Below, piece by piece: positions 9,741 to 64,000 of a DNA stretch of 64,000 nucleotides (its first letter is position 1; each line of letters opens with the position of its first letter). The stretch comes from Ulva prolifera. Taxonomy: Eukaryota > Chlorophyta > Ulvophyceae > Ulvales > Ulvaceae. The notes under the pieces were generated by a model. That model had not been told where the DNA came from and searched no databases. It was given only the letters and a program-made list of their open reading frames with translations. The DNA is taken from NCBI GenBank assembly GCA_023078555.1, contig CM041197.1:310001-374000 (forward strand). The letters run 5' to 3'. The position numbers and the translations under genes were made by a program.

Positions 9741-9952
9741 TCCAGGTGTGTCACAAGGATAAAGCCGGCAGCAGCGCGAAAGAAGCAAGCAGACCAAGCA
9801 TACACCCAGACACCCACGCACGCCACACCCATCACGCACAGATAGCCCATCACGCCCTCAGCAAACGACACAGATCCGCAGACCGCCAAGCACATACCCA
9901 CACACCCACACACACGCACACACAAACCCAACAGCCCACACACAACCACACA

Positions 9953-30532: not shown

Positions 30533-33500
30533 CTACACATCACCATCAGGATCGCCTTCACTAGCACCCCCCGCATTGCGCGTGGACCCCTCAAGCAGCT
30601 GTTCCCCGCAGTCCTCCGGATCCTCCCCACGCAAAGGCACCCCCTCAGCATCGAGGTGCGAGTAGGCGAGCCACACGAACGCGAGCGACGCCGCGAAGCC
30701 GACGGCGCCGAGGCACAGGTACACCGCAAAGGCAACAACAGACATGTAGCAGGTGTACAGGAGCAGGGCGAGGCCGTGCGAGGCTGTGGCAGGGATGTAC
30801 ACTTTGAGGAAGATGCAGGAGTAGCCGATGAGGTAGGCGGCGGTGGCGCCGCCGCGGTGGAAGGAGCGCCACCACCAGTTGTAGTCCTGTGATCGGAGCT
30901 GTGCATACCTGCAGCGGGGAGAAGGTGCTGACATGTTGACAGCATCTGGAATATGACGGCGATGTGCAAACACGACTAGTGTACCAGCACAGCCGCTGCG
31001 CAGGCCCCCAAAACTCGTCAATATTGGACTCTTGCTGCACAGGCAGGCCGTGTGCATGGCCGCCATTATGAACAAGAGGATTAATGCCAGCTTTGGTAAG
31101 CCTATTCCACAGGCACGATCAATACTGGTAATGGTACTAGTCCTGGTTACTGAGGAAAGAGTAGGTGCGCACGTCATGATGATGGAGCATTGTATGGTGA
31201 CGAGCACCATGAGCCCGAAGACGACGAGGAGGAAGCCAAACTGGTGGAAGAAGTAGCCCCGCCACATCGCTGACATCACGTAGTAGAGCCCGATGTTGAT
31301 AGTGCAGAACGGCAGGAGGCCGGCGACGGCGTAGAGCACGAGTGGTCTAGTAAGAAGCCGGGGCGGAGGAATATTGCGGGGGGCTGTGTTGGTGTTCCCC
31401 GGCCAGACGATGAGGGGCGTACGGGAGGCCTGATATCCGCCGAGGACTGCCAACGGGAAGCTGATGACAAGCCAGATGAGGTAAACACTGTCGATTTGGT
31501 CAAGGATCGGCGAGACGGCTCCCGAGAAGGACGGGTACGTAGTTGCATGTTTGTGCACGAAGCCGTAGATGCATGCTGCCCAAAACATGACACCTGCATG
31601 GGGCCGCGGCCTGTGACCGAGGATGTGAGTGTCATCTGTGCGCCCATGCACATGCACCCCAAAGCAAGCTCATGCCACGTCGGCCGAATGCACTGATCAG
31701 GGCTGGCCAATGCCTTACGAGCCCGGCGCTTGGCTCCAACTGCTCAGGTGTAACCCGCATACGAGGGGAGCGCAGCACAAAGGTACATGTATGCGTTTGC
31801 GATTCTTGTATTGTGCCAATACTCTGCTGGTCCTGGGTAGTGACGGCAGTGCAACCTCATGTACTGAAGGCCCAGGCGGGGGAGTGCGACTGCGCACCAG
31901 GTAGTTCAATCGCCGTCGCGAAGCACACCCCACTCCACCAGCTGAACTTCGAAGAGTGCTGCGATGACGAGCGCGCCATGTTGCGCCAGAGCAACACCGA
32001 CGAGAAGCCTCCAGTGATAGAGAGGGGTGCGTAGAGGAGGATGGCGGTGGTGAGCAGGGCGCCCCGCCTCGCAGGCGACAACAGCCCCAGAGCCGCAAGC
32101 ATGAGTGTTGCTGCAACAGTGCACAGGACATGCACACCTCCGCCGAAGAGTGACGCAAGGTGAACGGCTGCGGCGGGCTCACGGAAGACGTCTCCGGAGA
32201 CGAGTGTCCAGCCCGCCTCAGCCGATGGGTCCTGCACATAGGGAGTGCTGTTAGTGGGCTGGTGGGCCGAATGCTCAAGGAAGCGGCTGCGCAGGAGGAG
32301 ATCCTACTCGAAGCGCATTGCAACTCGCATACCATGTTGCGCACGTGAATGTCCGTGAAGCCTCGCCTGAGGGCAACGGCTCAGGACGTGTGTGCGCACA
32401 GCGGATATGGTAATGTCGCGACCCTGTGGGCTGCGGCGTGTCCTGCAAGACGTTTTCACTTGCATGCAGGCTTTGGACAAGATGCAGCCTGCGGGGGCGG
32501 GTCGTGTGCTGAGCACGGCCGTCGTCCATCGCTTCATGCCAGCACTTCCAGTTCTGTTATAGAGAGTTGTGATCATTGACAGCGCAAGCGCGGCTGACGT
32601 CTGCTGAAGCAGCTATGTGTATGCAGAGCACAATGGACAGCTCTTCAAGAGAAGAAAGTTTCCGAGGTCCCAAGTGATGGCAAGCCTGCAAAAGTGGGGG
32701 TGCTGATCCGGCCATTCCGGAGAGCATGCATGCAATGAAATTCGCAAGTACAAGCATTGTCTGATTTGCAATGCCCAGCGCTGCGTTATCTCACCTTGCC
32801 CTGCACGACTCGGCGAAGAATGTTGTTTTTGGCGAGGTCGCGGCGCACAGTGCGCAGAAAGATGATGGCGACCATCATGGACAGCACCAGCACCGTGGCC
32901 AGCGAGTTGAGCACAGAGAACCACTGCACCTCGTGCGCGCCGGCGGGGCTGTGCAGATAAGCGTCCCACCGGCGCGTCCAATTGATGTCGGTCTCCTGCC
33001 AGTACACGTCGTACGTGTACACGATGTCCTCGCCCTCAGCAACCACCTGCACAGTCGTGACGCACAAATGGCATGCATTCAACCGGCCCACAGTGCGCGG
33101 TCAGCGTGAAGTCATGCAACGTGTTCAGCATACATAAAAACTGTGGGAACGAGACATCTCAGCACATGTTATCATGGTGTACCTGCAAACCAATCAATTA
33201 TATTGCACCAGCCCATTCGCACAGTTCCGAAGAGGCACACCTGCGGCTCTGGATTGCGGGGGTCCCCCCAGGGTCGGCACTTGAAGCTCTTGAGGGGCTC
33301 GCCCTCAGGCTTGAGCCGCTTGATGCTGCAGGGCATTACCTCAAAGCCGACCACCTCCCACCTCACCTTCGCCTCCTGCGCCACAAGTTTAAGTGACTCA
33401 GCGCATCATCCGTGCGCTTGGATACACGGGCGCCAGCCGCAGGCTGTGCTACTCGCAGCACCGTCGACCTTCAAGTTCCGGGCTCGGCCTGTGCGCACAG

Positions 33501-36150
33501 CGCACAGCACGCAGCACACATCACGCAAGATCAGTCAAGGGTGAGTGTCGGTGCGTGCGGGAACGCGCTGATCATGGGAGCTACACACGCCGCTGTCCGA
33601 CGGCGACCCCGAGGATGGCATCAGCCTGTCTCATGGTCATGTGGCCGCATGTAAAGATGTGAGGCCACTGTAGCCGCCGACAAGTTCCGAAAGAAAGGCA
33701 GAATGAATGCCCGACGGCCCGAGGCAGCCGTGGGGCGGCGCTGCCAGCCGCAGCGACACAGAGCAGCTATACACCGTGACGCCATGTATGCATGTACGAA
33801 TATCTGCGCGGGGCATATCACATGGCGGGTGTACCGAGGTCGTGGAGTCGCCGCCTCCGCTGGCGTCGCCGGCGTCACCCGCGCTGTGGCGCCGGGGCAC
33901 GCCATGCATGTCCGCTCCACTGGCCTTGTGTATCAGAACGTTGAAGGCGAGGTGATTAAATATGATGTATTCGTTCGTGTCTCTGGTCTTCGCGCCGAGG
34001 TCAAAGCCAGGGCTCAGGTCGGTGATCACCTGCATGCATGTCAGGCCATGTGCTGTGCATGCATGACGGGCTCGCATCCGCGCATCACACATGCCAGGAC
34101 CAGCAGCAATGTCCATGTGAAAGCACCGGTACTAGAGGTTGCTAGTATTCTGAAAATTGATATGGATACATCGCATATGTTGTGTTCTTGTCTGGCAGCC
34201 CGACACTCTTCGAATCAGACACTACTAGCAGTACTGGCACCCATCGAGCATTTCGGGGAGGGATCGGGTGAGAGGGATGCAGACACTGTGGCTGTGGTAG
34301 AGCATGGAGGCGCCAGCAGTGCGCGTCACGCAGTCCTTCGAGGGCTCTCATTTGGAGGTGAAGCTGGCTATGCGCGATCACGTAGCAAATATCACACGTG
34401 AACAGCAGGTGACGAGCGCTGCACCTGTTCGAGGTCGAAGGTGGTGAGCGGCATGCCGTCTGCAGCCATTTGAATGCTGTAACCCTTGTCAATCTTGTCT
34501 TTCAGGTCCTGCAGGCGTATGTGCATGTGGTGTCTTCCAAGTTGAACAAGGCCACAGTGACGGACGGCCTGCGCTGGTTCTGGTGCATGCATGCGGGCCG
34601 GGGCGAAACTTTCATTTGCATTGAAAGTCAAAGTCACAGTACGGCCATGCTCAGCTTGGCTTGAATGTTAGTGCGCGGGGCTCAAGGCCTGGTGAGTACA
34701 TGCACAAGTACGTATACAACGCAAGCTGATGTCCGCTGGGACTTGATGGGAATCGCGGGGTATACAAACCAGCTCAACCTAGGCTGGTGCACGTGATGCG
34801 GTGACTCTGATCCCGAATTCCCCGCTGCTGGTGCGAGTCATACAGCAGCTCCGGGCTGGAAGACACGGAAACTAACACAGCATCGACTTCACCGACTCGG
34901 TATCATCAGCTTCCGGATGATAGCAAATGCTACGATTGTGAGCAGTCTTCACGCAAAAGTGACAACTACTTAAAGAGTCGGAATAGTCAATTTTCTGTGT
35001 ATGCCTGCTACTTTGATTCGTTACGCCGCAGTGCATGACAGGCCACCTATCTTGTGTGAAGCGTATCTCGAGATCAGTGGCAGTGGCAGTGGAGATGACA
35101 GTTTCAGCTGTCTATCACAAGCCCATGATCACTTCAGGATGGGCTGTGGTGCTTACCTCAGCTTGCGCCTGGGTGAGGGGGCCAGCCGATCCATCAGCGC
35201 ACGCCTCCTTCACTGTCTCATGCACCTACAACCACTGCTGACACTGTGTCACCTTTCAACAACAGGCTCCAACAGAATTGGTACACATTCGATATGACAA
35301 AGCCAGTACATGATCCGCGACCAGCGCATCCTACTCAGAAAAGTTTAGACTGGTTTTCTGAAGTTGATGCCTCTCAATTTTACTGCAAATGGCATCTGGC
35401 TCAGAGACGCACATTCACGCGCAGTTCGTATGGGGAATTGAACCGGCCCAGCCCTGACAGCTTGGTTCCCAGAATCTCCTTCTTTCTTTTCACTCCACCT
35501 TTGGTCTGGCAGAATGGCAGGGAGTAGTACTGAAACGGCAACTGTGCCTCAGAGGAGGTGAGCGAGTCCACTTCCACTGCACAAAGGCGTGACAATCAGC
35601 GATAGCCCGTAGTTCAGATAGATTGATACTAAAAGCATTCAGCATTTTGTGATCAGGTAGGCGTGTGTTTAATGCTAGCTCGGGGTGCTGGAGAGGCAGC
35701 TGTACCAGTCGCTGCAGTCGGACCAGAGGGGATGCATGAGCATCAAGACCCGACAACACGATCTACACTACCGGGGATGTTGACAATTGTGGCACACAAC
35801 GGTCAGTCGTGTACGTTCTTTGCGGATACAATTAGGTAGGCGAAGATGAACTTTACAACGTTAACCTGCCACACATCGCTGAACGAGTGGACACTATTTA
35901 AGAACGTGATTCCGCCGGGGGAGCTCACGGAACAGACACATGGCGGTCAATTTTCAATAGATTGCGAAACATATCAAGCCTGTCGCCATGGCAATTTGGC
36001 CAGAAGCTCACCCCCGAGCTTCTCTCCTTGCTCATACTTCTTCGGCTGGGCTCCGAAGAACTCGAAAGCATTTGCAGTGAGGAAACAGGCGAAAATAAGT
36101 AGAATCGCGTGAATTGACGAGCACATCAGCAGGCAGGGCGATGCCGGCAT
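30533..36150 (-). CDS. Nonaspanin (TM9SF/EMP70 family), copy 1, subtype A
   Basis: The ten-exon model, 5' to 3', is 36012-36150, 35413-35576, 35157-35225, 34425-34508, 33901-34029, 33241-33375, 32795-33046, 31898-32231, 31173-31593 and 30533-30908. All junctions are GT-AG and in phase, giving 700 residues. A signal peptide (about 1-28) leads into a lumenal domain with KYEQGEKLGVEVDSL, PFQYYSLPFC, GRFNSPYELRV, NHLAFNVLI and VGFEVMPCSIKRL. A YTYDVYW...RRWDAYL block then precedes the first membrane segment (WFSVLNSLATVLVLSMM). GDVFREP, LSPARRG, YPSFSGAV, IWLVISFPLAVLGGY, YYVMSAMWRGYF, YNWWWRSFHRGG and YLCLGAVGFAASLAFVW are family landmarks across nine or so helices. Nonaspanins guide transmembrane cargo in Golgi and endosomes. 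After the last helix there is a hydrophilic tail of about 45 residues ending DPDGDV, not the usual KxD. Confidence 0.93.
33490..33535. repeat. Intronic CGCAGCA-type minisatellite, also in copies 2 and 4
   Basis: The homologous intron between exons 5 and 6 carries a variable run of the 7-bp unit ACGCAGC. It is short here, longer at about 40740-40775 (copy 2) and longest at about 57815-57845 (copy 4). Flanking cacatcacgcaagatcagtc is shared by copies 1 and 2. Confidence 0.7.
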
Positions 36151-36159
36151 CGTCTGGCC

Positions 36160-36900
36160 TGGAGGAGCTGCGTTTGCAGCACAACTGGCTCAACGACTGC
36201 AGCGCGTGATCTAACCTCGCTCAACGGGAATTGCAATTCACATGTATTTAACCGTCAGTAGATCGGTCCAAGCGGGCGCTTCGACCTTGCTTGCTACGCG
36301 AGGGAACGCTGGCCGATGGGCTCTGCAAGCGTGCAGCTGACGATCCGGTTGCCCAAGCGAGTGAAAATTACTGCAGGTCACGGGATCTCAACGTGCCTTT
36401 TGGCTCCGCGACTTCATTTTGAACATTCGCGATTGCATGCGTATGTGCGTGTCCAGTGCTGCGAAGTTGGCAGTTCACTGCACGGAGGTATTTGGGTCCA
36501 GATCATTTACAACCCAGATAAAAGCGAAGCTGGCCCAAATAAAAAACACGTTCAGACACCAGTGATTCTAGCTCGGGAGCTAGCTCGGACATCAACGTGC
36601 ACGGGATCGGGCCTCACAAACAGGCCGTCGGGGCTCGAACGCTGCAAACGGAAAGCTGCTACACAGCGTGATTCTGGATGCGTTGGTGTGCGGTTCCCCT
36701 GGTTGCCGCGGTGCTACCTGCCTTCCTCGCTTTGTCCTCGTAACACAGCGTGATGCTGCCTCAGCTGAGGCTGAGCTCAGCCAATCTCAGTAGACGGCCC
36801 CACGTCGTGATGACCACAGGTGTGCACAAGCTTGTGCGTCGCATGCATGCAGAAGGATCTTCTGAAAAGGTGCACACAGCATGAGCGATGATGGTGACTG
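36160..36900 (-). promoter_or_regulatory. Conserved 5' flank of subtype-A nonaspanin genes
   Basis: The 600-700 bp upstream of the ATG of copies 1, 2 and 4 are alignable. All share an aacgtgcc/aatgtgcc block followed by tccgcgactt. At 36798-36827, 44268-44296 and 61121-61150 there is the best-kept run, CCACGTCGTGATGACC, then (A/T)CAGGTGTGCACA. It contains a CACGTC core of the type bound by bZIP factors. Conservation above the flanks suggests a shared promoter element, or simply recent duplication. Confidence 0.5.
36673..36742 (+). mobile_element. 70-bp LINE 3' end with target-site duplication
   Basis: ACACAGCGTGAT occurs at 36661-36672 and 36743-36754. Between them lies ...ttgccgcggtgctacctgcc...tttgtcctcgta, the family's 3' end. 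It inserted into the 5' flank of copy 1. The corresponding place upstream of copy 2 lacks it, so it postdates that duplication. Confidence 0.8.
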
Positions 36901-43673: not shown

Positions 43674-44670
43674 CGTCTGGACTGGAGGAGCTGCGTTCGC
43701 AGCACAACTAGCTAGCGCTCAATGGCTGCAACGCGTGATCAAACCTCGCTCAGGTTGACTTGAAGTTCACATCTAAGTACTACTCGGTAGACCCGTGCAA
43801 GCGCGCGCTGCCACCTTGCTTGCTGTGTTGACAAGAGGGAACGCTGGCTGATGGGCAGCCAGGCACGCGTGCAGATGACGAACCGGTTGCCCAAGCGAGC
43901 AAACTGCAAATCACTGCAGGCCGCGTGATCGTCAGAGGCTCTCAACGTGCCTTGTGGCTCCGCGACTTGTCCATTTTGAACACACGATGTCATGCACATG
44001 TGCGTGTGTCTTGTGCCGCGAAGCTGACAGTCCACTACACGTCGGAATCTGGATCCAGGTCATCAGCAGCTACACAGACAAGACCGGAACTGGCCTAACC
44101 TCCAGGCATGTACAGCTGCAGGCATCGGTGATTCGAGCGCTGGAGCTAGCTCGGGCATCACTGTGCACGAGATTGGGCCTCACAAACAGGACACCAGGGC
44201 GCCAGCGCTGCAAACGGAAAGCTGCTACGCAGCTCGTTGCTGCTTCAGTCACTTGCGATGGACGTTTCCACGTCGTGATGACCACAGGTGTGCACACGCA
44301 TGCATGCAGCCGGCAATTAATACGCGAAGCGCTGTGCTCAACTGTGCTAGATGTCCAATGATCAAGTTCTGCAAGAAATGATGGCTGTACATGTCACCGT
44401 CCCAAGACTGGTGCGCAATCAGGCTGATGTTTGCCCAATCGTTGTAACATCTGACTAGAGTGTCACAGTCGAGTACAGGCAAACACAGCAGAAGCTTGCA
44501 ATTGTCTTGGAAGACAAGACTGGAGGGGATTGAATTGCCACAGGGCAAGGCCGGAACATGTGGTGTCTGTCCATGAGTGTCATGTAACCAGCAACAACCA
44601 GTGCCTTTTATACTTTACAGGGTACAGTACTGTATACATATAGGTACGTACCTAGCATAAGATGTGTGTC

Positions 44671-45311
44671 ACAAGGACAAAGGCAGCAAGTCGGGCAGCA
44701 CCGCGAAAGGAGCAAGCAGACGAAGCAAACACCAAGACACCCACGAACAGCTCACCCATCACCGGCGTAGCAAGCGACACAGACCCGCAGACCGCCAAGC
44801 ACACACCCACACACCAGCACACACACGCACAGACCCACACACCCACAAACCCAAACCCACACACGCGCACGCACAAACCCCACGGCCGACACACAACATC
44901 ACAACCACCAGCACCACAACGCCCGCCGCCGCACGACAGGGCCAAACCCAACACACTGCTGCCTGAGGCCGCCCATCATGGCCGCCCGATTGCCGGGGGC
45001 CGCCCTGGCCCCAAGACCCACCCCCACCCCACCAAGCCACAGCATACCACGCCAGCCCGGCACACCGCCGCGCAGCCCCGCCGGCCCACGCCGCACCGCA
45101 CCTAGGACACTGCATCGCCCAAGCCGTGCCGCAGTCCCCGCACATGCCAACGAAGGCATCCCGCACACCCATCGGACCCGGCCCAGCTGGAGTCAGAGGC
45201 CACAGGCCGGTGGCGTCAAGCGGACGGGGCGCCCAAGGGGCACCCCACCGCTCAGGCCGGATGGCCTGTAAGCGGCGAGAGGTCATCAGACGGGACTGTG
45301 AGTCCCGTCTG
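44671..45311 (-). mobile_element. LINE copy, 641 bp, with exact 14-bp target-site duplication
   Basis: ATAAGATGTGTGTC at 44657-44670 is repeated at 45312-45325. The element includes the family's 3' UTR and the last codons of its ORF. The stretch ggcctgtaagcggcgagagg at about 45264-45285 is the complement of the region around 10955-10995 in the longer plus-strand copy. Exact duplications indicate a recent insertion. Confidence 0.92.
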
Positions 45312-45325
45312 ATAAGATGTGTGTC

Positions 45326-46431: not shown

Positions 46432-47108
46432 CTAATGACCGTCCACGTGCTCTCTGCCGTCCGCGGCCACGCCATCAAAACGCGAAGACGCCAGCCACAC
46501 AAACGCGAGCGACGTGGCAAAGCCGACGGCACCCAGGCCGATGTACGCCACCAGCGCGACTCCGGACATGTAGCAGGCGTACAGCAGCACGCTGGCGCTG
46601 TGCGAGGCGATCTCGGGGAGATAGACAAGGAGGTAGTACATGGCGAATAGGAGGACGAAGACGGCGGTGGCGCCGCCGCGGTGGAAGGAGCGCCACCACC
46701 AGTTGTAGTCCTGTGCGCAGAGCTGCATGTACCTGCAGCGGAAGCCCCACATAAAGTAAGGGCGTTGTAGGGGATGCAAAGCAAAGTGCATGCTGCATTG
46801 TAGTACAGCGATGGGGCAAAGTAGGCTTGGCACTGCCGGTCGTGACTCACTCGGAGGTACAGAAGGGACAGCTACATTGATAGTTGTTCAGGCAACAATA
46901 TGCAGGAAGGCAGCGCGCTCGACACATGTGTACATGACTGCGGCTGGCGGCACAACGTGGGAAACTGACGTCAGTCGACTCTGTCTATCCTCTAGTCAGG
47001 CTCGGCCGAAGCGGTACAAGCAGTTGCCGGTCTGATACCATGCTCCTCAATGTGCACACAGAGACATGTGCCCGCCCCCCTCAATGTGCACACAGAGACA
47101 TGTGCCCG

Positions 47109-47139
<31 letters not shown>

Positions 47140-50100
47140 TGCTGCAATCGTGTACGCAGAATGATCAGCATATCTGCCTACAGCCGCGCTTGACAGTGAG
47201 CTAAGCAACCGTGTTTGCCGCGCCAATACGCGTGAAGTCGCGGACGCCGGTGTAGACAGGCATAGGAGCGGTGGCCACGCGCGCACATGTCACCAGCATG
47301 ACGGTGCCATTTTGCAGACAGGCAGCTGTGTACAAGGGCAGCGCACGTGCACAGGATTGACATCTGGGCTGTGTTGAGCACGGTCAGGCCGCAGCTGAGC
47401 AGGAGGACGCGATGCGGGACGTGGTGGCTGCGCCAGGCCGCCCCCATTCCAAAGTCCAGAGCGATGTACAACGTGCTGAGCGGCAGCAAGCCCGCGTACG
47501 AAAACATCACGTATGGGTTCTCAAACCAGCGAGACGGTGACACGGTGTGGGGGGCCATATTGGTGTGCTTCGGCCAGGAGAGGAGTGGGGCATGGGCGGC
47601 CATGTAGCCACCAGGGTACGCCACGCCACAGCTGATAAGCAGCCTAAGCACCACAGGGAGGCCTGGTCGTGAATACTGCAAGCTGAATGGGCGCGGAGTC
47701 CTGCCAGAGTCGATGGCAGAGAGCATGGTGTTGAGGACGACGAAAGATAGGAAGATTGCGCCTGCAGACGTAGTCAGGGTGTTATGCAAGGGCAAGCGTT
47801 GTGTGAGCATGCATGGGCCGCATGCATGGGCGGCCTTGAGAATTCACCACCTCGTGTGGTGTGTGCGCCCATGCACCCCCGTGTGTTTATGACAGGAAGA
47901 CATTGTGCGGGCAAACGTAAGCCACAGCGAAAATCATGCCAAGACATGCAAGGTTTTGTTGCACGTGCAACCGTGAGGTGCCGGCCAGCATTATACAGGT
48001 AGTGGAGAGCAGCAGTGTTGGGTCACCTTGCAGAATATTCGGGACCGCGACCCAAAAGGTGAGCTTGGATTTGGGATTTGTTTAATGTGTATGGGCCGGA
48101 CGACCCAACGCGGATGGAAAAGTACACCTCGCCCACACTGCACGTCCTGGGGGCCATGAACATGACAGAACGGCGCACAAGGCTAGGGCCCTTAAGGCCT
48201 GCACGGCCTGATCTGCTGCTATGTGCAGTTTGCACGAGAACCTGTGAAGACAGCAGTGAAGTTGTGCGATGCACCGAGGAGGTTCAAGAGCGCACCTGGT
48301 ATGGCGAACGCCGCTATCAGGCACACCCGCCTCCACCCGACTGACGAGCGCTGTAGATTGCACCACAGCCACACCGTGCAGTACGCAGTGACAAACTTTG
48401 TTATCGCGAGCCGGACTAAGGTGGCCGTGGCGGCCAGCGCGTCCCACGTCGTGGGCAATGGGGAGCCCGTAGCCGCGAGCCCGAGTGCAGACGCGACAGT
48501 CAACAGGACGTGCACACCCCCGCCGAAGAGCTCTGCAAGCTGAGCGGCAGCGGGGGGCTCGCAGAAGACATCGCCAGCGACGCGCATCCAGCCGAAAGCC
48601 TCAGGTCTCTGTAGGCGGGGCACTCGAGTGTTCTCTAGCACGCGTGCATAGCATGCACGGTGGTAGGCATGGGCTAGATTATGCAGGGGATGATGTTCTA
48701 GATGCAGTATTGGCGCTTAGATGGTGATGCGGCTACCGGCTGCACCATGGTCGACAGTTCCCCAGGGACGACGCCACCCCGATACTTAGATCGCGTCAAG
48801 CTTCCTAATTATAAGCTGCTGAGGGAAAATTGAGTATTGATGGCAGGCCTACCAGCAAGAGTCTCTCCAGATCTGGGATTGGAGTGCAAGGGGCGGTCGT
48901 TGGACACCTGTGACCGGGCCCGGGGCTGCCAGTGGCGGCCACACCACACAGGAAGGCAGTCATGTAGCTGTGCTTAAATCTCAACAACATGAATCAGGCA
49001 TCGTATCATCACTCCTGCTGGAAGCTAGAGCATGCTGTGGTCACACTAAAGCAGCACGGGTCCGAAGCTGAGGTCAGATGTACCGTAAAACCCGTCCAGA
49101 CGTGTCCCTATAATTCAAACCACACGCCTCTGCCACGGCACACACCTTGCGATCACCTATTGGTCCGTGGTGGATCTTGTGGTTGGCGAGGTCACGGCGC
49201 ATGGTGCGCAGCAAGGCGGCCACCGCACTGACGGAGAGCAGCGCCGCCAGCATCAGCGCACTGCACACGGTGGACAGGTTGATCTCGGCGCCACCCGTGG
49301 ACACGCGTAGGTACGCATCCCAACGGCCCGACCACTCGATGTCAGAGCCCGTCCAGTACACGTTGTACGTGTAAACGATCGCCTCGCCCGGGGCGACTAC
49401 CTGCACGGCAAGCAATGACATACGCGCAATGACATAAGCCACATGATGTATGAATATGTACGACACACATGCCGACTCGGGGCTGGGCAGGCCTGAGCTG
49501 AATCCGCTTCGACCATTCAATTTCGAAACCCGATTTTGAATTCACGATGTGACAGAGCATGGCACGTCTTCCAAAATGCTGAGTCTAGCTGCTCATCTGA
49601 AGACATGCTGCATAGTACACGATGGGACACTGCAAGTCATCGTGCAGCTGCTACCGCAGGCGGCACCGCTGCTACTTGTGGCAGCCACCGGCGGGCTGTT
49701 GCATCTGTTTAGACCCATGCACTCGTCCGATTTTGAATTTATTTATTTTTGACGGCACGTGCGCACCTGTGGCTCGGGGTTGCGGGCTAGGTCCAAGGGC
49801 AATTCGGCGCAGGTGATGTCTTCCAGGGGCTCGCCCTTGAGCCTCTTGATGCTGCACGGCAGAACCTCAAAGCCGACGATCGCCCACATCGTCGATACGT
49901 GCGATTCATCCTGCGCAGCACGGACACCTAAGTGCACAGGATACAGGCCCGCACGTGAGAAAGCTCCCGTCCGAGTCATTGAGGCACAGTGGCACTTCAG
50001 CACAGACCGCGTCCACACTGTGGCAGCAGCTCTTGACGCATGTGTACACATGCGCTGCCAGCTGCCAGTGGTTGCAGCGTGCCGAAAGCTACTGGGCAGT

Positions 50101-50431
50101 GCCAATGAGAACCCTATATAGCATATATATATATATATATATGGCACATATAGAATTGAATTGAATCACTTCAAGTTGAATCGGCTGGCGGAGGTTGCGT
50201 CTCGGTGTGGCAAGGTGAACCGTGCTTTGTTTGTGACGAATGCTCTGCGCCGGTTGAGTGTGGCGTTGTGCAAGGGGAATGCTCTTGTGCTCCGTGCGGG
50301 GCTTCAATCTTTGGCTGGCATCACCGGCCGAGCTGTGGTACGTGCTCGTGCCCGGACTAGTGCCATGACTGCGTGAGTGGATTTGCGTGTGTATTCCTGG
50401 CAACGGCTCGCTTCCCGGCCTCTGTCCTTTG

Positions 50432-50501
<70 letters not shown>

Positions 50502-53500
50502 ATTTGGATGCCTTGCAGCATTCAGTACACAACATTCAGGCAAAGCTCAAAGCTGTGGATGGGCCGGAGTAGATGTGCATGAGCACTGGGGCATGCACAC
50601 CGCCCCATGCATCATATGGCTGCAGTACGTTTGATTGCATCAATCTGACATCGCGAAGAGATGCCCATGCAGGATGTGGCAGTGCAGGCATGCACTGCGC
50701 CCAATATTAATGCACAGCCACACATGTATTGGCTCTGGACATCTGTCGCTACTCTTTCAACTCATGCATCGCGTTGCGCACCGCACTACTAGTAGCTCTG
50801 TGGCCATTCCCATTGCCCACCGACTTGCCAGCCTTCTGCGCAGCAGGCGGTATGCTGTTGCCGTGCAGCCTGTTCACCAATACGACAAAAGTGAGGTGGT
50901 TGAAGACGACAGTGTCATTGCCGCGGACAGCGCCGAGCGGAGCGCCCAGCGGCACCGGAGCGCGGACCTGCATGCATGTGCGGGGCGTCACTGATGAGCA
51001 TACATGGCGAGCCACCGGTGGAACACACACCTTCCTGGATCGCCCATGCACTGCGCGGCTGATGCTTGAAATTTACTGCAAAATATGGATTGGCCAGACT
51101 CGATCTGTAGAGCTCTGCGCCGAGTGAGCGACACACAGCCGCGGGGAGACATGCCGGCGGTTTCTGACATGGGTGGCTCCGCGCCTGAGCCCCCTCTTGT
51201 GTCTAGTTCACTTGAGCCCCACCAATGCACACGCCAACACTTACTCACGGTGCAAAGCACACTGGTTGTGGCACATGCCAACAGCGCCAGCGCCACAGCA
51301 AGCATTCGACAGATAGAGGAATGACGTGTGGTTGGCATTCATGAAGTCAGTGAAGTCAGCACTGTCCAGGCACGAGGGTGTAGGCAGTCAGCATGTCAAG
51401 ACAGCGTGGCCACGAGTGATCACTGGCAGGCCCTGCGGGAAGCATGCTCGTGCGCACCTGCGTGTGCTCCAGGTCAGCTGTGATGACCGGCAAGGTATCG
51501 AGCTCCATGTGAGCGCGGTAGCCCTTGCGGATTTTGTCTGTGAGGTCCTGCAAGCGCGTCTATGCATGTGGTGTACATCACGGTCATTTACCGCATGTAC
51601 CCAGACCCGCCGGAGCGGTGGTACATTTCACAGCTGGAAACTCGGTCGAGGCGTCTCTCAGATCTGAGCCTCCGTGTGCATGGAACAGCTAAATTGCACA
51701 ACTCAGGGCGTGAGGATATCTGAGGGAAGGAGATGCAGAATATGTCCGTGCCAGCGACGCTGACATGGCATGGAGCCGGCTACACGCATGCCATCACCTG
51801 TGCCAAGCATACTGGGTAGATGTGATGCATGCTCATAGACGGCCCTGACTCATCGGATGAGGGCAGCCCGCCACCGTCGTGCCCCTGGGAGTTGCTGTGG
51901 CGATGCTAGCGGCAGTGAACCGGCAAGATGACCAGATGTTCTTGAAGATGACACACTTCGAAGTGTTACAAGGACAAAGGCAGCAAGTCGGGCAGCACCG
52001 CGAAAGGAGCAAGCAGACGAAGCAAACACCAAGACACCCACGAACATCTCACCCATCACCGGCGCAGCAAGCGACACAGATCCGCAGACCGCCAAGCACA
52101 CACCCACACACCAGCACACACACGCACAGACCCACACACCCACAAACCCAAACCCACACACGCGCACGCACAAACCCCACGGCCGACACACAACATCACA
52201 ACCACCAGCACCACAACGCCCGCCGCCGTACGACAGGGCCAAACCCAACACACTGCCGCCTGAGGCCGCCCATCATGGCCGCCCGATTGCCGGGGTAGAT
52301 ACTCTCTCCTGGACGAGCAGGCATGCAGACACTGGCGGTTGGGCGAACATGTGAATAGCAGGCTCTCAGATGCTGGCATTGTTGTTGGCTGCACTGAAGG
52401 GACGCTGGAGAGACTCACCTCGGCTTGCTCTGCATTGAGAGCACCAGCTGAGCCATGGCTGCAGGCATGCTTCACAGCCTTATCACCCTGCAAACAACAT
52501 GCTACCATTCCCTACCGTGCTGTGCCGTTGTGCACATTCGACCTGATGAGTCTCGAGTCAATGCTATGGGCTGGTCAGTGCGATATCTAGCAGCTGGCCA
52601 GGTGTCTACTGGTGCGCAAGCTGTGGTGCTGTTGCATGACTACAGGTCCGTGCCCGCATTCAGCATGACAGAACAAGAACACTGATCAGAGTACTTTCGT
52701 CGGAACGTGCATTCAGGCAGCAGTGTCTCCGTTTGACGCTCATGGATGGCATGGCAAGCATTGGTTGGAGCGTACAAAGACTCTGAAGTGATATGGCCCC
52801 GGGGAGTTGTATTGTGCATGCCCTGCCAGGAAAGTCCACAGGGCAGACCAAGATTTCCTCTGCTTTACTCCTGATATAGCTTGGCAGAATGGCAGCGAGT
52901 AGTAAGCATATGCTACTTGAGCCTCTGAGGACGTGAGGGAACCCACTGCCACTGCAGAAACATTCAGCCATCGAACCGCATCACCATCGAAACAGCAAAC
53001 AGATCAGCAGTCTTTTAACACCGTCAGCATTGTCATGGCTGAGCTGGTCTGGGTACTGCGCGTCGCGGAGGGCTGGAACAAGTTGCTCGTCAGCGTCGCA
53101 GGCCACTATCGCCTCGGTGCCTTGCAACGCTACAGACGGCGCCACTTGCCGTGAAACGTCTTCGTAGATGGCTGCTTGAAGGAAAGCCTTCAGTCCGTTG
53201 GGAGGGCAACGTCAGCGGAAGACATTCGCGAATGATGCCGGTGCCAATAGCCACGTCGTGCACGTCAAACGCAACGTGTCCATGGAAGAATGCTCACATG
53301 GCATCAAGGTCACTGACAATCACCGAGAGCAACATTACGATTCACGTCCGGCTGTCAAGTTCCATATGACTGCCGCATACACTCAGGATATGATAGAAGC
53401 TGGAGTCCTCAGCGACCACAGGGCTGCCTGCGCACCTTCAATGCTCTCTCCGATTGTGTACCCATTCGGCTGGAAGTGACTGGCATTGGCTGTAAGCAGG

Positions 53501-53556
53501 CCGGCCAACGCTAGCACGATCACGTGTATGAACGGGCCCCGCCCCTCACTCGACAT
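46432..53556 (-). CDS. Nonaspanin (TM9SF/EMP70 family), copy 3, subtype B
   Basis: The ten exons are 53436-53556, 52776-52951, 52419-52487, 51458-51547, 50821-50967, 49767-49910, 49146-49400, 48296-48608, 47347-47761 and 46432-46732, in phase, 676 residues. Intron positions and phases equal those of copy 1, but the sequence is much more diverged. The N-terminus is MSSEGRGPFIHVIVLALAGL. The lumenal part has YYSLPFCQ, NHLTFVVLVN and VGFEVLPCSIKRLKGEP. The YTYNVYW...GRWDAYL block is kept. Usually constant membrane positions vary: YPSFSGAV is replaced by a different sequence, and MWRGYFFHQ by AWRSHHVPH. The last exon keeps YNWWWRSFHRGG and ends after a short tail, REHVDGH. Introns carry two LINE fragments, an (AT)n tract and a poly-C tract. 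Confidence 0.87.
47046..47135. repeat. 34-bp tandem pair ending in a poly-C run
   Basis: A unit beginning CTCAATGTGCACACAGAGAC is present twice in tandem. The second copy ends in about 27 consecutive C (47109-47135). It lies in the last intron of copy 3. The exact C count is likely to be unreliable in any assembly. Confidence 0.85.
50123..50499 (+). mobile_element. Second LINE family: truncated copy inserted in an (AT)n microsatellite
   Basis: AT repeats at 50123-50142 and 50436-50499 flank about 290 bp on the plus strand. The 50161-50376 frame encodes a LINE-like C-terminal tail (LRRLSVALCKGNALVLRAGL ... RARARTSAMTA) comparable to the tail of the 9.95-10.98 kb ORF. The UTR ends cctctgtcctttgtaac. 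The AT tract is both target and duplicated flank. It lies in intron 5 of copy 3. Confidence 0.7.
51963..52296 (-). mobile_element. 5'-truncated LINE in intron 3 of nonaspanin copy 3
   Basis: Nearly identical to the first half of the 44.67 kb copy (ttacaaggacaaaggcagca ... gcccgattgccgggg), ending abruptly at 52296. It sits in the same intron (between exons 3 and 4) as the LINE of copy 2, but it has a different length and truncation point. No clear duplication of the target is visible. Confidence 0.85.
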
Positions 53557-58000: not shown

Positions 58001-60497
58001 AAGATCTATGTGAGGCCACTGCCTGTGCTGTCCAGAACAGAGCCATGTTTACAATGACATATACAGAAGCAAAGAACACTTGTCTGAGGCAGTCGTGCTG
58101 TGGCACTGCTGGCCGTAGTGACACAAAGCAACTGCACCGTGTGACACGACATCAGCGGAGGGCATTATCATATGATATGGCATGCGCACCGGGTCAGGGA
58201 TGCCGCTGCCTGCGCTGGTGCCGCCGACGTCGCGCACGCTGCTGAGCCGCGACGCAGCATGCATGTCCGCTCTGCGTGCCTTGTGTATCAGGACTTTAAA
58301 AGCGAGGTGGTTGAAGATGACGTAGTCTTTCGAGTCGCTGGTCTTCGCGCCGAGGTCAAAGCCAGGGCGGAGGTCGGAAACCACCTGCATGCATGTGATG
58401 CCACATGCATGCATGCTGAGCCAGCAGGGCCTGGATCACATCAGCACTCCACTGTGGCGACAACATGCCAACCTCAACAGCACCGCTGATTGCCAACCAC
58501 TGGTAATTGAAGCCACAGTCTCGGAGGGTGTTGCGACGATATAGAACAAATTTAGCCCCGACGATCTTGAACAAATCTGGATCGACGGCTACAAGCGCAA
58601 TCATGCAGTCTAGATCACATGTGGACAGCAGGTGACGTGCGCTGCACCTGTGTGAGGTTGAAGGTGGTGAGCGGCATGCCGTCTGCAGCCATCTGAATGG
58701 TGTAGCCTTTGTCAACCTTGTCTTTGAAGTCCTGCAGGCGTGTGCGGTGTCGTATAACAGGGCCATGATTGGCCTGTACTGTTTGTTTCCATGAGTGAAC
58801 CTTCGTTCATGGAGGTGCATGCATGCAGGCCGGGCAGCGATGGAAATCCATCTTGATAGCACAGACATGCTAAGCAACTTGAAGGCTTGCACAGAAGTAA
58901 CTACAGAAGAGTGGAAGGGAATAGACAAATACAGCAAACTGTTCTCTTCCAAATCAACAGCCACACACAAACGGGTTGCATATGAGTGGGCTGGGCTTGC
59001 AATTGGGCTTTGCACATGCAACACCAGGTGGCCATGCATATGGAGACAATATTGCAACAGGGCACTGATGCATCTGAGTGTTGCTGACTCGGAGTGTACA
59101 TGTTGCTGGTTATACAGTGTTTGGGTCAGATAATAGATTTTTTTTTGTAATTATCATTTAAACGATTTGGGCTTTTCCATTCGATGCTGGGAAATTTCTT
59201 GGAAGCCACTGCCGCCAGCCATACAGTGCACGCGGGGTGGAAGGTGCAGACTCAACAGCACAAATTTCGTTGCGCCTGATGGTGGCCGGTGATTCCCTCG
59301 TGAACAGTGCTCAGGCAACAGTGGACGTTAGCTTGCATGCGTACCCCGTAGGCTACCACATAGGCCAGTTCATTCGTGTGGCAGTATGCGGATGGGCGAA
59401 CACATGTGGCAGAAATATTTGATTAATCAAAGCAGTTTAGCCGCGGCCTGACATCTGTATACAACCCCATTTTCACTTCATGCTGATTGCTACCAGCTGG
59501 TAGCAATCACTGGAGCCTACCTGAACTTCAAGTTGTGAGTGAGCCGAGTGAGCGGGCCAGCTGATCCATCAGCGCACACCTCCTTCACTTCCTCATGCAC
59601 CTACAACAACTATCGACGCCATGTCAACTGTCAACCGCAGGCTCCAACAGAAGTGATGCCCATTGGACATTGTAAAGCCAGCACAGAATCCGTGATATCG
59701 ATCGATCAGCGCATTTCAGACTGATGCATCTAGCTTTGAAACGCACATTCACTCGCAATTCGTATGGGGAGTTGAACCGGCCCAGGCCGGACAACTTGGC
59801 TCCCAAACTTTCCTTCCTTTTCTTCAACCCACCTTTCGCATGGCAGAATGGCAGGGAGTAGTACAGAAACGGCACTTGAGCTTCAGAGGAGGTGACCGAG
59901 TCCACTTCCACTGCACGACACCGTGATCTCTGGCGACATCACGTGGGGTAGACAGACTTACAACTGGAATCATTCATCCGTTTCAGTACACGCTGGCATG
60001 ATTTCCACGCTCACTGGTGTGCTTGAATTGCATCCGTGCCAGAGCATGCATTCGCACCAGGAGGAATGCATGGGGACCTCCGACAACACGACAGGGTCTG
60101 CCGTGCAAGGTTGAGATAGTCGCAGAGAGACGTGACGCCGTGTTATGTACACATTGACAGGACATCAACCTAAGTGGAGACAAACGAGGCAATCTGCCAC
60201 GCATCGCCTAGCAAGCGCAACCCGAGCACACACTTTGATAACGCAAAAACGCCGAAATAATTGGAATTATTGAAAGTTTCGACATGTAATTGCAATTATT
60301 ATCCCAGTCAAAGCGACATGTCAAGCCCGTCTCCATGGCAACGGGGCCGGAAGCGCACCCACGATCTTCTCTCCTTGCTCATATTGCCTCCGTCGGTCTT
60401 CGAAGATTTCGAAGGCTTCCGCTGTGAAAGGACTAGCAATTAGAAGTAACACTGCGTAGATTGACGAGTATATCAGCGGGCATGGTGATGCCGGCAT
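55068..60497 (-). CDS. Nonaspanin (TM9SF/EMP70 family), copy 4, subtype A, one irregular exon border
   Basis: The exons are 60359-60497, 59747-59910, about 59523-59600, 58648-58731, 58238-58384, 57548-57676, 57105-57356, 56484-56817, 55728-56160 and 55068-55452. Nine exons join in the same phases as copy 1: signal peptide SIYAVLLLIASPFTAEA, RRQYEQGEKIVG, YYSLPFCHAKGG, NHLAFKVLI, VGFEVMPCSIKRLRGEP, YTYDVSW...RRWDAYL, GDVFREP, LSPTRRG, MPALWQGYFFDQFGFL and FNWWWQSFHRGG. Exon 3 starts normally (VHEEVKEVCADGSAGPLT), but the donor seen in copies 1-3 is altered. The next GT (ttcag|GTAGGC) would leave phase 2 before a phase-0 exon. So copy 4 either uses a noncanonical donor or an earlier GT (gag|GTGTGC), or is impaired. 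The tail is about 50 residues, ending GDADSEV. Confidence 0.82.
57815..57845. repeat. Expanded ACGCAGC run in the exon 5-6 intron of copy 4
   Basis: Four consecutive 7-bp units plus a variant unit. They sit in the same place as shorter runs in copies 1 and 2, showing length change since duplication. Confidence 0.75.
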
Positions 60498-61690
60498 CGT
60501 GTTGAGGAGAAGCAGCGCTCGCAGCACAACCCCTTCAACGACTACAACTCGTGATCTAGCCTTAGTGAAATACAAATAGTATCAAAGTAGTACATAGCCG
60601 ATCCGTGCAAGCGCGCGCTGCAGCCTTGCTGATGCGTTGCTGATATGGCCTATACCTAGCTAGCTATGCAGGCGTGTAGCTGACGATGCAGATGCCCAAA
60701 CGAACACAGTGCTGCAGGTTCTTCAATTGTCACATGTGAACATGTCTCAATGTGCCCCATGGGCCATGGGCCATGGATCCGCGACTTGGCCATGCGAACA
60801 CTCGAAATTGCATGCTCGTGTACGTAACTTCTGTTGCTATGTGGCCACGCGTGGACAGCGTGATTTTTGGATCCGGATGACGAAGCTAAGACTGGCCCTG
60901 GCACAAAGCGTGCTCAGTCATCAATGACACCAGCCAGCACCAGCAGCTGGGGTGGTAGCTTGGAGATCAAGTTGCAAAGGATTGGCCATCGCAAATTGGT
61001 CCCCGGGGCTTAAACGCTGCAAATACAAATGGCGTTTTAACGTAATAGTGCGTCACGTTTCTGCTCGACGCTGCTTTAGCCACTTGGCATGACTCATGTG
61101 ATGCATATCCAATGGACGTCCCCACGTCGTGATGACCTCAGGTGTGCACAAGCATGTGCGGCGTATGCATGCAGAAGGTACACGCAGAGTGATCTCATGG
61201 CGTGCATGCTTTGGGGCATTGGCGTTGCCCTGGCGGTTCCACCTGCCACTCCGATTTCGTCATTGTGACACGCAGGATGATACGAGGAGGCACAGGATGT
61301 CAAAAAAACGCCGACAGCGGTGCAGGAGGCTGTGCTCGATCATGCCAGATGTCCAAGGAACGAACTGCACACATTTGTGAAGGGACAACAGCTGTCTTTC
61401 ACCATCGGGTACCTTTCGTCCGGTCTGCACTGAGGCTGCTGCATTTCCGATTGTTGCAAAAGCTGAATGAACTACGCTGGTACGGGAGGCTGCAACAGCC
61501 ACAAGGAAAGGTGCACGGGAATGTGCTCTGGCAGAATAACACTGGCAGCACCTCTCAATGCACGGCCAAGGAGAAACACAAACAACCATTCCCCGATGGG
61601 CCGTGATGCAGCAACATCCCCAGCAGGCCACCCGATCAGGGACGATGATGTGATCACCAGCGCATTGTGTCAGAGCACAACCACACACAT
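60498..61690. other. 5' flank of copy 4 and spacer
   Basis: Up to about 61200 this aligns with the 5' flanks of copies 1 and 2, including the CCACGTCGTGATGACC element at 61121-61150. A tggcggttccacctgccactcc...cattgtgacac stretch at 61224-61270 resembles a degraded LINE 3' end. No gene recognised. Confidence 0.5.
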
Positions 61691-61693
61691 CGG

Positions 61694-62107
61694 TGGCATG
61701 GGCCGGCGGGGCTGCGCGGCGGTGTGCCGGCCTGGTGTGGTGTGCTGTGGCTCGGGGGTCGGGGGTGGGGTTTGGGGCTACGGCGGCCCCCGGCAATCGG
61801 GCGGCCGGTATGGGCGGCCTCAGGCAGCAGTGTGGTGGGCGTGGCCCTGTCGTACGGCGATGGGCGTTGTGGTGTTGGCGGTTGTGTTGGTGTGTATGGA
61901 CTAAGTTGTGGGCCGTGGGGTTTGTGCGTGCGTATGTGGGTGTGTGGGTGTGTACTTGGCGGTCTGCGGGTCTGTGTCGTTTGTTGCGCCGGTGATGGGT
62001 TTTCTGGGCATGGTGGGTGCCGCATGCATGGGTGTCTGGGTGTTTGCTTCGTCTGTTTGCTTCTTTCGCGGTGCTGCCCGCCTTGCTGCCTGTGTCCTTG
62101 TAACCCG
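61694..62107 (+). mobile_element. 5'-truncated LINE, about 414 bp
   Basis: The plus-oriented family 3' end (gcggccccc ggcaatcgggcgg ... cgcggtgctgcccgccttgc ... gtccttgtaac) lies between CACATCGG at 61686-61693 and CACATCGG at 62108-62115. It sits between copies 4 and 5. Confidence 0.85.
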
Positions 62108-62115
62108 CACATCGG

Positions 62116-62844
62116 TATCCAGGAGAACACTCTATAGGCGCTCTGCGGCCCGCGGTCAACAGGCCGGAACTGGGACCTAGTGGCCAGAACCGAGAATCTA
62201 CACATCAGACTGCAAGTGGACTGCTGCGGCTGTCAATGCAGTCGACGTGATCTGACAGACGGAGGCTGTCCATGCCATCACCTTCTTGTGATCGTTGAAC
62301 ACAGTGGCCGTGGGTAAGGCTGCCCGGCCTCAGAAAACATGCAATGCTCACGTACCTGCCATCAGAAAAGCACCTGGATCCGCTGACATGCATCGCAGAT
62401 CCCGCATCAGCACAGCTGGCGGGCTGCTAGAAGTCGGGCACACTGTCGTGGCATACATTTGCACAAGCTGGTGGCCTTGTGCTGACATGTGCAGGGCACA
62501 ACGACACTGCCAGTGTCTACGACTGTCTTCGATTGTCAACAAAACAATGCTGAGACGAAAAGGTGACACTGATGGTGTGTAGCGTTGTGATGCCGGGCTC
62601 GTTTCACATCAGCCTCCACATCAACATGGGGGTCATGCAGATGCCCATGCAGGTTCGCCAATCATCTTCCAGCATCGAGTGCAGTGAGACACCAGCACGC
62701 CTGTCCCCTGGCCCCTCAAGTCCACTCATGCGACTCACATGACAGCATGCATCCAGTAGCCTTACAGCAGGCTTGTGGCTGTGGGATGTGCTGAAACGAG
62801 CAGGTGGAAACTCCAGAGTCTATCGGTTCCGCGCCGGGCCCGCT
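62116..62844. other. Spacer downstream of copy 5, no gene recognised
   Basis: No domain or exon-like frame on either strand. The segment at 62760-62844 leads into the stop of copy 5 and is probably its 3' UTR. Confidence 0.5.
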
Positions 62845-64000
62845 TCATGTCCTGGCCTCCACATCACCACTCCCGTCAGCTGCCTCCCCAGAGCGCGCCT
62901 GCGCCGATGGCTTCTCGCAGTCCACGTGCTCTCTGCCGTCCGCGGCCACGCCGTCAAGACGCGAATACACCAGCCACACAAACGCGAGTGATGTGGCAAG
63001 GCCTACGGCGCCCAGGCAGAGGTACGCCACCAGCGCCACGCCGGACATGTAGCAGCTGTACATCAGCACGCTGGCGCCATGAGATTCCATGGCGGGGAGG
63101 TGGCTGTGGAGGTAGTGTATGGCGAAGAGGATGAGGAAGACGGCGGTGGCGCCGCCGCGGTGGAAGGACCTCCACCACCAGTTATAATCCTGAGCGCAGA
63201 GTTGCAAGTACCTGCAGCGAGAGCCCCGCAGTTGGAGACTGGGAGGACGGCATGACAGAGACGCACTGCAGTGCGGTGTAAGACAGCAATGACAAGGAGA
63301 TGCGTGGCATTGGCGACGGTGTTTCCTGGACAGCTTGTATCAGATCAGGTGGCTTCATGGCAACAGGCAGGGTCCTTGCTACGGCCGGTAACGCGGCGCA
63401 GAACGCTAAATGCGAACACCGACATGTTGCGAAGCACGTCCGGTCAAACTAAGCAAGAAGCGGTAATAACATCTGCTGAGAGCGTGCGAGGCGCTTCTGT
63501 GAATGTTTTCCACCCTACATGGACCCTACTTTGCTGGCGAAAGTTTTCACCGAGTACACATCAAACAAACACGCACATCCATCCGCATGTCCGCTTGTAG
63601 CCACACTCAAGTGGATCACCTGGGCACCGATACGTTTCTCGTTGCACCGGCCGCGGGTATGTTTAGGCATAGCAGCGGCAGCCACGTCACCATTCTAGGA
63701 GGCACCTTTTGACAGCTGGAAGCAGTTACAGAGGAAGGCAGCGCACGTGCACACGATCGAGAGCAATGCCGTGTTGAGCACGGTCATCCCGAAGGTGATG
63801 AGCAGGAACCCATACTGGTTGCAGAAATGGCCCTGCCAGGCCGCATCCATTGCAAGGTGTAGGGCCATGTACATGGTGCTGAACGACATGAAGCCGGTGT
63901 ACGAAAACATCACATACGGATTTGTACTCCAGCGGGGCGCCGGTATGGGGCGTGGGGTCGCATTGGTGCGCTTCGGCCAGCGGACCAGGGGCATGCTGGC
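62845..64000 (-). CDS. Nonaspanin (TM9SF/EMP70 family), copy 5, subtype B, 5' part beyond the window
   Basis: The last exon is 62845-63211 and the penultimate exon 63747 to the window edge, with the same border phases as in the other copies (AC|GTGCGC donor, CTGCAG|GTAC acceptor). Encoded landmarks are WPKRTNATPRPIPAPRW, NPYVMFSYTGF, AAWQGHFCNQYGFLL, CAQDYNWWWRSFHRGG and YLCLGAVGLATSLAFVWLVY. NPYVMFSY, the AAWQGH region, CAQDYNWWW and GVAADGREHVD are shared specifically with copy 3, so the two are sisters. The C-terminal tail is about 40 residues and ends DVEART. Eight upstream exons should follow to the right of 64000. Confidence 0.88.

What the first reader, a model, noticed from the sequence alone, without database searches (positions are those of the whole stretch)
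30533..64000. Tandem array of five nonaspanin genes in at least 33 kb
TM9SF/EMP70 genes are usually few and dispersed in eukaryotic genomes. Here five head-to-tail copies on one strand keep the same ten-exon structure and intron phases, and copies 1-3 are uninterrupted. Such an expansion suggests dosage selection or diversification of cargo recognition, since the lumenal exons vary most.
Basis: partly seen in the sequence, partly recalled or inferred. Interest (0 to 1): 0.8.

Follow-up and report, generated by a model that had tools for sequence, protein, structure and literature searches.

The report
Seaweed nonaspanin array without Golgi tag
A green seaweed carries a row of five related genes for Golgi sorting proteins, and all of them, unlike the ordinary copies elsewhere in its genome, lack the short end tag that normally holds such proteins in the Golgi, so they may work elsewhere in the cell.

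Summary
Five head-to-tail TM9SF/EMP70 genes (A-E) lie on the minus strand at 30533-68661; the fifth gene's 5' part is outside the window. Each has ten exons with shared intron phases and 45 of 45 introns are GT-AG; D has one frameshift, in exon 3. The genome is Ulva, very probably U. prolifera: its plastocyanin is identical in 98 of 98 residues to PDB 7pcy. At least 12 TM9SF loci were found: this array, a second array on contig C4 (three genes and a remnant), and three dispersed genes. Tree and dS indicate duplication of a two-gene block, then of one gene. Constraint is clear: dN/dS is 0.33-0.53 among A-E, and A, B, C and E have no premature stop where neutral drift predicts about 9-15. The new point: the C-terminal KXD/E Golgi-retention motif, kept by C4d and the three dispersed genes (4 of 4), is absent from the other seven array genes and the remnant. 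Most likely these are divergent, functional nonaspanins outside the normal Golgi-retained pool; localisation is untested.

The parts
30533..36150 (-). Gene A: ten-exon TM9SF/EMP70 gene, 722 aa, stop TAG at 30535-30533, no KXD/E end, acidic tail ending ...EDCGEQLLEGSTRNAGGASEGDPDGDV
   Evidence: Exons 36150-36012, 35576-35413, 35225-35157, 34508-34425, 34029-33835, 33375-33241, 33046-32795, 32231-31898, 31593-31173, 30908-30533; Pfam EMP70 435.8 bits
37860..43673 (-). Gene B: ten exons, 705 aa, sister of A (82% aa identity), tail ...GEDCGEQLLEGAT
   Evidence: Exons 43673-43547, 43135-42972, 42792-42724, 41802-41707, 41281-41087, 40601-40473, 40289-40038, 39542-39209, 38889-38469, 38190-37860
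46432..53556 (-). Gene C: ten exons, 689 aa, sister of E, tail ends early at TAG (46434-46432)
   Evidence: Exons 53556-53436, 52951-52776, 52487-52419, 51547-51458, 50967-50782, 49910-49767, 49400-49146, 48608-48296, 47761-47347, 46732-46432 (end of exon 8 set by homology); Pfam EMP70 304.7 bits
55068..60497 (-). Gene D: ten exons, sister of A+B, frameshift in exon 3 (probable pseudogene, or a gene that skips exon 3)
   Evidence: Exons 60497-60359, 59910-59747, 59600-59521 (frameshifted), 58731-58648, 58384-58190, 57676-57548, 57356-57105, 56817-56484, 56160-55728, 55452-55068; the best model with frameshifts forbidden needed an 8-nt exon
62845..64000 (-). Gene E, 3' part (exon 10 63211-62845 and most of exon 9 64146-63747); the gene continues outside the window to 68661 (window numbering; L009)
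   Evidence: Exons 68661-68532, 68100-67931, 67626-67552, 67157-67074, 66726-66535, 66078-65950, 65645-65391, 64867-64555, 64146-63747, 63211-62845; 704 aa (end of exon 8 set from the DNA); Pfam EMP70 370.6 bits
44666..44998 (+). 333-bp dispersed repeat in the B-C gap; second copy at 51963-52295 in intron 3 of gene C
   Evidence: Self-blast 98.2%; 40 genome places over at least 332 of the 333 bases at 98% or more, itself included, out of 1052 first-look candidates of which 40 were scored

Best explanation
This is a lineage-specific tandem expansion, in an Ulva genome, of a TM9SF (EMP70/nonaspanin) gene whose canonical form survives as C4d on another contig. SHOWN: five adjacent genes with a shared ten-exon structure; one clade; X X Y X Y order, implying duplication of a two-gene block followed by duplication of A/B; purifying selection on most copies; one frameshifted copy (D); [quoted passage not shown] lower identity to C4d in the membrane part than in the lumenal part. 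INFERRED: the proteins keep the nonaspanin job of escorting membrane proteins through the secretory pathway, but without the COPI-binding end they are not held in the Golgi and act later (trans-Golgi, endosome or surface) or through another signal. Changes in the membrane part, where TM9 proteins are proposed to bind glycine-rich transmembrane cargo, would alter cargo choice. A link to ulvan wall assembly or adhesion is speculation by analogy with Arabidopsis TMN1.
For: Gene models and introns; Pfam; genome-wide count (lower bounds by the tool's own note); trees and AU tests: alternatives pairing D with E or B with C rejected at p<1e-5; dS A-B 0.30, A/B-D 0.48-0.51, C-E 0.59, between the two types 0.88-1.03 (ranges); dN/dS 0.33-0.53 for the 10 pairs of A-E, with the upper bootstrap bound below 1 in all 28 pairs tested; 0 premature stops in A, B, C and E against means of 9-15 in neutral simulation, 0 of 500 runs stop-free in each of three settings; KXD/E present in 4 of 4 canonical proteins and absent in 7 of 7 others and in the remnant C4b; literature passages on KXD/E and COPI (PMC6348303; PMC8096605) and on glycine-rich TMD cargo (PMC4510845).
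Against: No expression or localisation data. D is frameshifted and C is strongly diverged, so part of the array may be decaying. dN/dS of 0.33-0.53 also fits relaxed constraint. The KXD/E loss may not be one event: remnant C4b groups with KXD-bearing C4d in the best tree (support 81-88), although a single KXD-less clade is not rejected (AU p=0.22). In A-B, C-E, A-E and E-C4d the lumenal and membrane dN ranges overlap, and A-C4d overlaps slightly. Retention of canonical residues is significantly lower in the membrane part in only 4 of 7 copies taken singly. Exon models come from an aligner that favours open, frame-keeping exons, so the absence of stops is partly built in. Tails are shortened in B and C relative to A and E.
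Confidence: 0.55

Rival explanations
1. Birth-and-death decay: a tandem family under relaxed constraint, most copies of which are on the way to pseudogenes, with no new function. The KXD loss is then just degradation.
For: D frameshift; remnant C4b without recognisable exons 6-9; lone exon-4 fragment at C1:10315482-10315605; canonical membrane residues lost (36-59 of 76 kept); dN/dS up to 0.70 for C4a.
Against: Zero stops in A, B, C and E over dS 0.3-1.0, where neutral drift predicts means of 9-15 stops; 45 of 45 introns of A-E are GT-AG; all 28 dN/dS upper bounds below 1.
Confidence: 0.25
2. Dosage amplification: more of the same nonaspanin is needed.
For: Multiple adjacent copies with parallel structure.
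Against: 42-82% aa identity, loss of KXD/E, unequal divergence across the protein.
Confidence: 0.05
3. Diversification of lumenal cargo recognition.
For: Exon 5 (lumenal linker) is the most variable exon in A-B (65% aa identity) and in C-E (46%, exon 9 next at 48%); A-B lumenal dN is slightly above membrane dN.
Against: Lumenal identity to C4d exceeds membrane identity in 7 of 7 copies; A-D and B-D dN is higher in the membrane part.
Confidence: 0.1
4. Assembly artefact or uncollapsed haplotypes.
For: None found; a 333-bp repeat lies between copies.
Against: Copies differ at dS 0.3-1.0, far above alleles; the contig is 12.5 Mb long and the window has no N.
Confidence: 0.02

Closest known systems
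Canonical TM9SF (TM9SF2/4, Arabidopsis TMN/EMP12, Dictyostelium Phg1A)
   Same: EMP70 domain over most of its profile (A, C, E), hydrophobic membrane half, WWW(R/Q)SFHRGG motif in all five copies
   Different: No C-terminal KXD/E in the array copies; acidic tails; more diverged; tandem arrangement
C4d, the canonical paralogue in the same genome (C4:4009573-4014313)
   Same: Ten exons with the same phases, 43-57% aa identity to A-E
   Different: Ends VKAD (KXD/E); longer lumenal exon 5 (411 nt); closer to the dispersed gene C1s than any array copy is (lumenal 38%, membrane 42%, against 30-36% and 25-39%)
Dispersed plant TM9SF families
   Same: Multigene families: 47 in wheat and 21 in Arabidopsis as given in PMC10800943 (passages read)
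   Different: That paper reports no tandem or segmental TM9SF duplicate pair in wheat; here 9 of 12 loci found are in tandem arrays

Membership tests
TM9SF / EMP70 (Pfam PF02990) as a homologous family | EMP70 domain over the curated cut-off | tested here: met
   A 435.8, C 304.7, E 370.6, C4c 311, C4d 539.5 bits, cut-off 27; B and D above cut-off exon by exon
TM9SF / EMP70 (Pfam PF02990) as a homologous family | Signal peptide, large lumenal domain, nine membrane spans | tested here: inconclusive
   Simple hydropathy finds 6-9 segments in A-E against 10 in C4d and 9 in C1s, leader included where detected; no dedicated predictor or structure was used
Canonical Golgi-retained TM9SF | C-terminal KXD/E that binds COPI | tested here: not met
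   Absent in A-E, C4a, C4c (7 of 7) and in the remnant C4b; present in C4d, C1s, C3p, C3m (4 of 4). The array copies A-E are therefore not filed as canonical Golgi-retained TM9SF. COPI binding itself was not tested
Canonical Golgi-retained TM9SF | Golgi localisation | not testable with these tools
   No imaging or fractionation data
Tandemly arrayed gene cluster | Adjacent, same strand, common descent, more diverged than alleles | tested here: met
Functional protein-coding genes | Open frames and purifying selection | tested here: met
   For A, B, C, E; not met for D, which has a frameshift in exon 3
Functional protein-coding genes | Spliced transcripts | not testable with these tools
   No RNA data available

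The most novel reading that the evidence does not exclude
Ulva has evolved a subfamily of nonaspanins that natively lack the COPI/Golgi-retention tag and work as post-Golgi or surface escorts with altered intramembrane cargo choice, possibly serving the sulfated wall polysaccharides or adhesion of the seaweed. It would be a natural version of the KXD deletion studied in cell lines.
Probability: 0.3. Interest if true: 0.6.

Novelty: new variant of a known kind. Interest (0 to 1): 0.42.

Why it matters
The KXD/E end is described as a consensus of TM9SF proteins that binds COPI, and in human TM9SF2 deleting it abolished restoration of Gb3 synthesis (PMC6348303, passages read). A set of constrained natural paralogues without it, beside a canonical paralogue with it in the same genome, gives a direct test of whether nonaspanins can work without Golgi retention, and which part selects cargo.

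Tried and rejected
Extra array members upstream of E: the model 'F?' was a chain of chance exons. Full-length C4b: only exons 4, 5 and 10 are recognisable. C3p and C3m were used only from the membrane-proximal part onward because their 5' exons could not be modelled reliably from C4d; C3m's model needed a frameshift in its unreliable 5' part. Solved structures: no PDB chain matched C4d at E<=0.001 (query an early model with part of the exon-5 linker missing). Viral contigs: 95 pattern matches, no relative confirmed. Literature: no paper held all of nonaspanin, green alga and gene family; a search on Ulva with TM9SF/nonaspanin/EMP70/transmembrane nine listed 15 of 37 papers, none of the 15 holding the word Ulva (the other 22 were not seen); the listings (titles and abstract starts only) showed nothing on this family in Ulva. 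Searches were literature searches that supplied papers used here. The KXD/E primary paper (PMC4642860) is not held, so KXD/E statements rest on passages of PMC6348303 and PMC8096605. Structure prediction was not tried, because spliced proteins are not contiguous translations of the window. Other green algal genomes were not available, so how old or widespread the array is could not be tested. A [DE]xxxL[LI] sorting signal in the EQLL tails was considered and rejected by eye: the spacing does not fit the recalled consensus. Tests of positive selection beyond pairwise and per-exon dN/dS were not run.

Full report
WHAT IS THERE. The window is C2:310001-374000 of an 88.9-Mb genome in 44 contigs. 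All have ten exons; phases are 1,0,0,0,0,0,0,1,2 in A, B, C and E, and in D apart from the frameshift; 45 of 45 introns are GT-AG. E's 5' part lies beyond the window. D's exon 3 is frameshifted; with frameshifts forbidden the aligner resorted to an 8-nt exon, although exon 3 is a symmetrical exon whose skipping would keep the frame. Gaps between genes are 1.5-2.8 kb, and the longest ORF of each of the four gaps has no Pfam family. Spliced A, C and E match EMP70 over most of its profile; B and D match exon by exon.

THE ORGANISM. Its spliced plastocyanin is identical in 98 of 98 residues to PDB 7pcy, with 1iuz next. That 7pcy is the Enteromorpha prolifera protein is recalled; NCBI resolves that name to Ulva prolifera. 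The genome is thus Ulva, very probably U. prolifera or a close relative.

THE WHOLE FAMILY. A Pfam search of the genome gave 44 matches, 44 of 44 within 12 loci: five in C2; four on C4 (C4a, remnant C4b, C4c, C4d); and one each at C1:2.74 Mb (C1s), C3:6.63 Mb (C3p) and C3:10.44 Mb (C3m). A protein search with E gave 64 matches, 63 of them in these loci and one in an isolated exon-4 fragment on C1. A search with C1s (53 matches) found no further locus. Nine of the 12 loci sit in two arrays. By the tool's note such counts are lower bounds.

HISTORY. On 394 columns the C2 copies form one clade (support 96), with (A,B),D and (C,E); C4a and C4c are sisters; C4d lies nearest the dispersed genes (support 92). 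With remnant C4b added (631 columns), the best tree has the same C2 clade (support 100) and puts C4b with C4d (81-88). Forcing D with E or B with C is rejected (AU p<1e-5), whereas a single KXD-less clade (p=0.22) and a single C4 clade (p=0.18) are not. Gene order is X X Y X Y, most simply explained by duplication of a two-gene block X-Y followed by duplication of one X. The dS values fit: X-Y 0.88-1.03 (six pairs), D against A/B 0.48-0.51, C-E 0.59, A-B 0.30, with overlapping bootstrap ranges for D against A/B and for C-E. C4b looks like a mosaic: it matches C4d at 93% over 126 nt (exon 4), 98% over 130 nt (exon 5) and 89% over 251 nt (exon 10), but its tail is of the KXD-less kind.

ARE THE COPIES ALIVE? 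dN/dS is 0.33-0.53 for the ten pairs among A-E and 0.33-0.70 for all 28 pairs with C4a, C4c and C4d; the highest upper bootstrap bound is 0.84. Neutral simulation from A's coding sequence predicts means of 9 to 15 premature stops for the branch lengths concerned, with 0 of 500 runs stop-free in each of three settings; the models of A, B, C and E have none. This shows constraint over most of their history, not present expression. Counting is Nei-Gojobori; dS near 1 is close to saturation; and the aligner favours open exons, so the stop count is not wholly independent.

WHAT CHANGED. (1) C-terminus: C4d ends VKAD, C1s VKID, C3p IKAE, C3m IKSD, so KXD/E is present in 4 of 4. A-E, C4a and C4c end otherwise, 7 of 7, as does C4b. 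The residue in the place of the lysine is D, E, N or A in the others and the stop is lost, so the tail runs on for 11-39 further residues (my count from the sequences). Net charge of the last 30 residues is -2 to -9 in the seven against 0 to +2 in the four. A, B, D and C4c share EQLL. Published passages state that TM9SF proteins carry a consensus C-terminal KxD/E that binds COPI, that masking or mutating it affects COPI binding and localisation, and that deleting it from TM9SF2 abolished restoration of Gb3 synthesis (PMC6348303, passages); and that it is a Golgi retention signal conserved among TMN homologues (PMC8096605, passages). (2) Membrane part: identity to C4d is lower in the membrane part than in the lumenal part for 7 of 7 copies (A 54 against 61%, C4c 39 against 57%; the smallest gap is E, 47 against 49%), whereas the canonical pairs show the reverse (C4d-C1s 42 against 38%; C3p-C3m 57 against 50%, but on only 34 lumenal columns). 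dN is 0.279 (membrane) against 0.147 (lumenal) for A-D, 0.245 against 0.146 for B-D and 0.581 against 0.344 for C4c-C4d, with non-overlapping ranges; A-B, C-E, A-E and E-C4d show no clear difference and A-C4d overlaps slightly. Residues shared by C4d and C1s are kept less often in the membrane part in 7 of 7 copies, individually significant in 4 of 7.

HOW IT LIKELY WORKS. TM9 proteins are proposed to be intramembrane cargo receptors for glycine-rich transmembrane domains (PMC4510845, abstract and passages). Keeping that job, losing the COPI tag and changing the membrane part most simply yields escorts with different residence and different cargo. This step is inference. Arabidopsis TMN1 is reported to be needed for rhamnogalacturonan deposition (PMC8096605, passages), and TM9SF2 for the heparan sulfate enzyme NDST1 (a study cited in PMC6348303), so a role in the rhamnose-rich sulfated ulvan wall (composition recalled) is conceivable but untested.

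VERDICT. A real, mostly intact, lineage-specific tandem expansion of a known family. Neither dosage nor lumenal diversification is the best reading. The unexpected feature is consistent absence of the Golgi-retention tag in constrained copies. It is a new variant of a known kind, of moderate interest until localisation is shown.

Noticed in passing
window 44666-44998 and 51963-52295 (related stretches near 9761, 11734, 13061, 42337, 61695): A 333-bp dispersed repeat, 98% identical between the two sites, with 40 scored genome places at 98% or more out of 1052 first-look candidates: apparently a young abundant mobile element, one copy inside intron 3 of gene C.
   Followed up: partly
window 15137-16141 (+): Part of an animal-type haem peroxidase gene (Pfam An_peroxidase, 145.5 bits).
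   Followed up: no
window 27163-27912: 172-bp tandem repeat, 4.4 copies at 93%, next to a 20-27 kb stretch of long ORFs; the five tested there had no Pfam match. That it looks transposon-like is an impression.
   Followed up: no
C1:10315482-10315605 (L022): An isolated exon-4 copy of the array type (66% aa identity to E) far from any TM9SF locus found: a stray duplicate.
   Followed up: partly
C4:3992592-3994279 (L013): C4b, a TM9SF remnant with exons 4, 5 and 10 and a long GT-type repeat between; very close to C4d (98% over 130 nt at exon 5) but with a KXD-less tail, suggesting gene conversion.
   Followed up: partly
L009 7631-9998 (C2:381631-383998, +): Large ORF with a right-handed beta-helix domain (88.6 bits) on the opposite strand, about 3 kb upstream of gene E.
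   Followed up: no
C4c, C4:4000270-4000551 (L013): Exons 5 and 6 are fused in C4c (282 nt): an intron loss within the array type.
   Followed up: no
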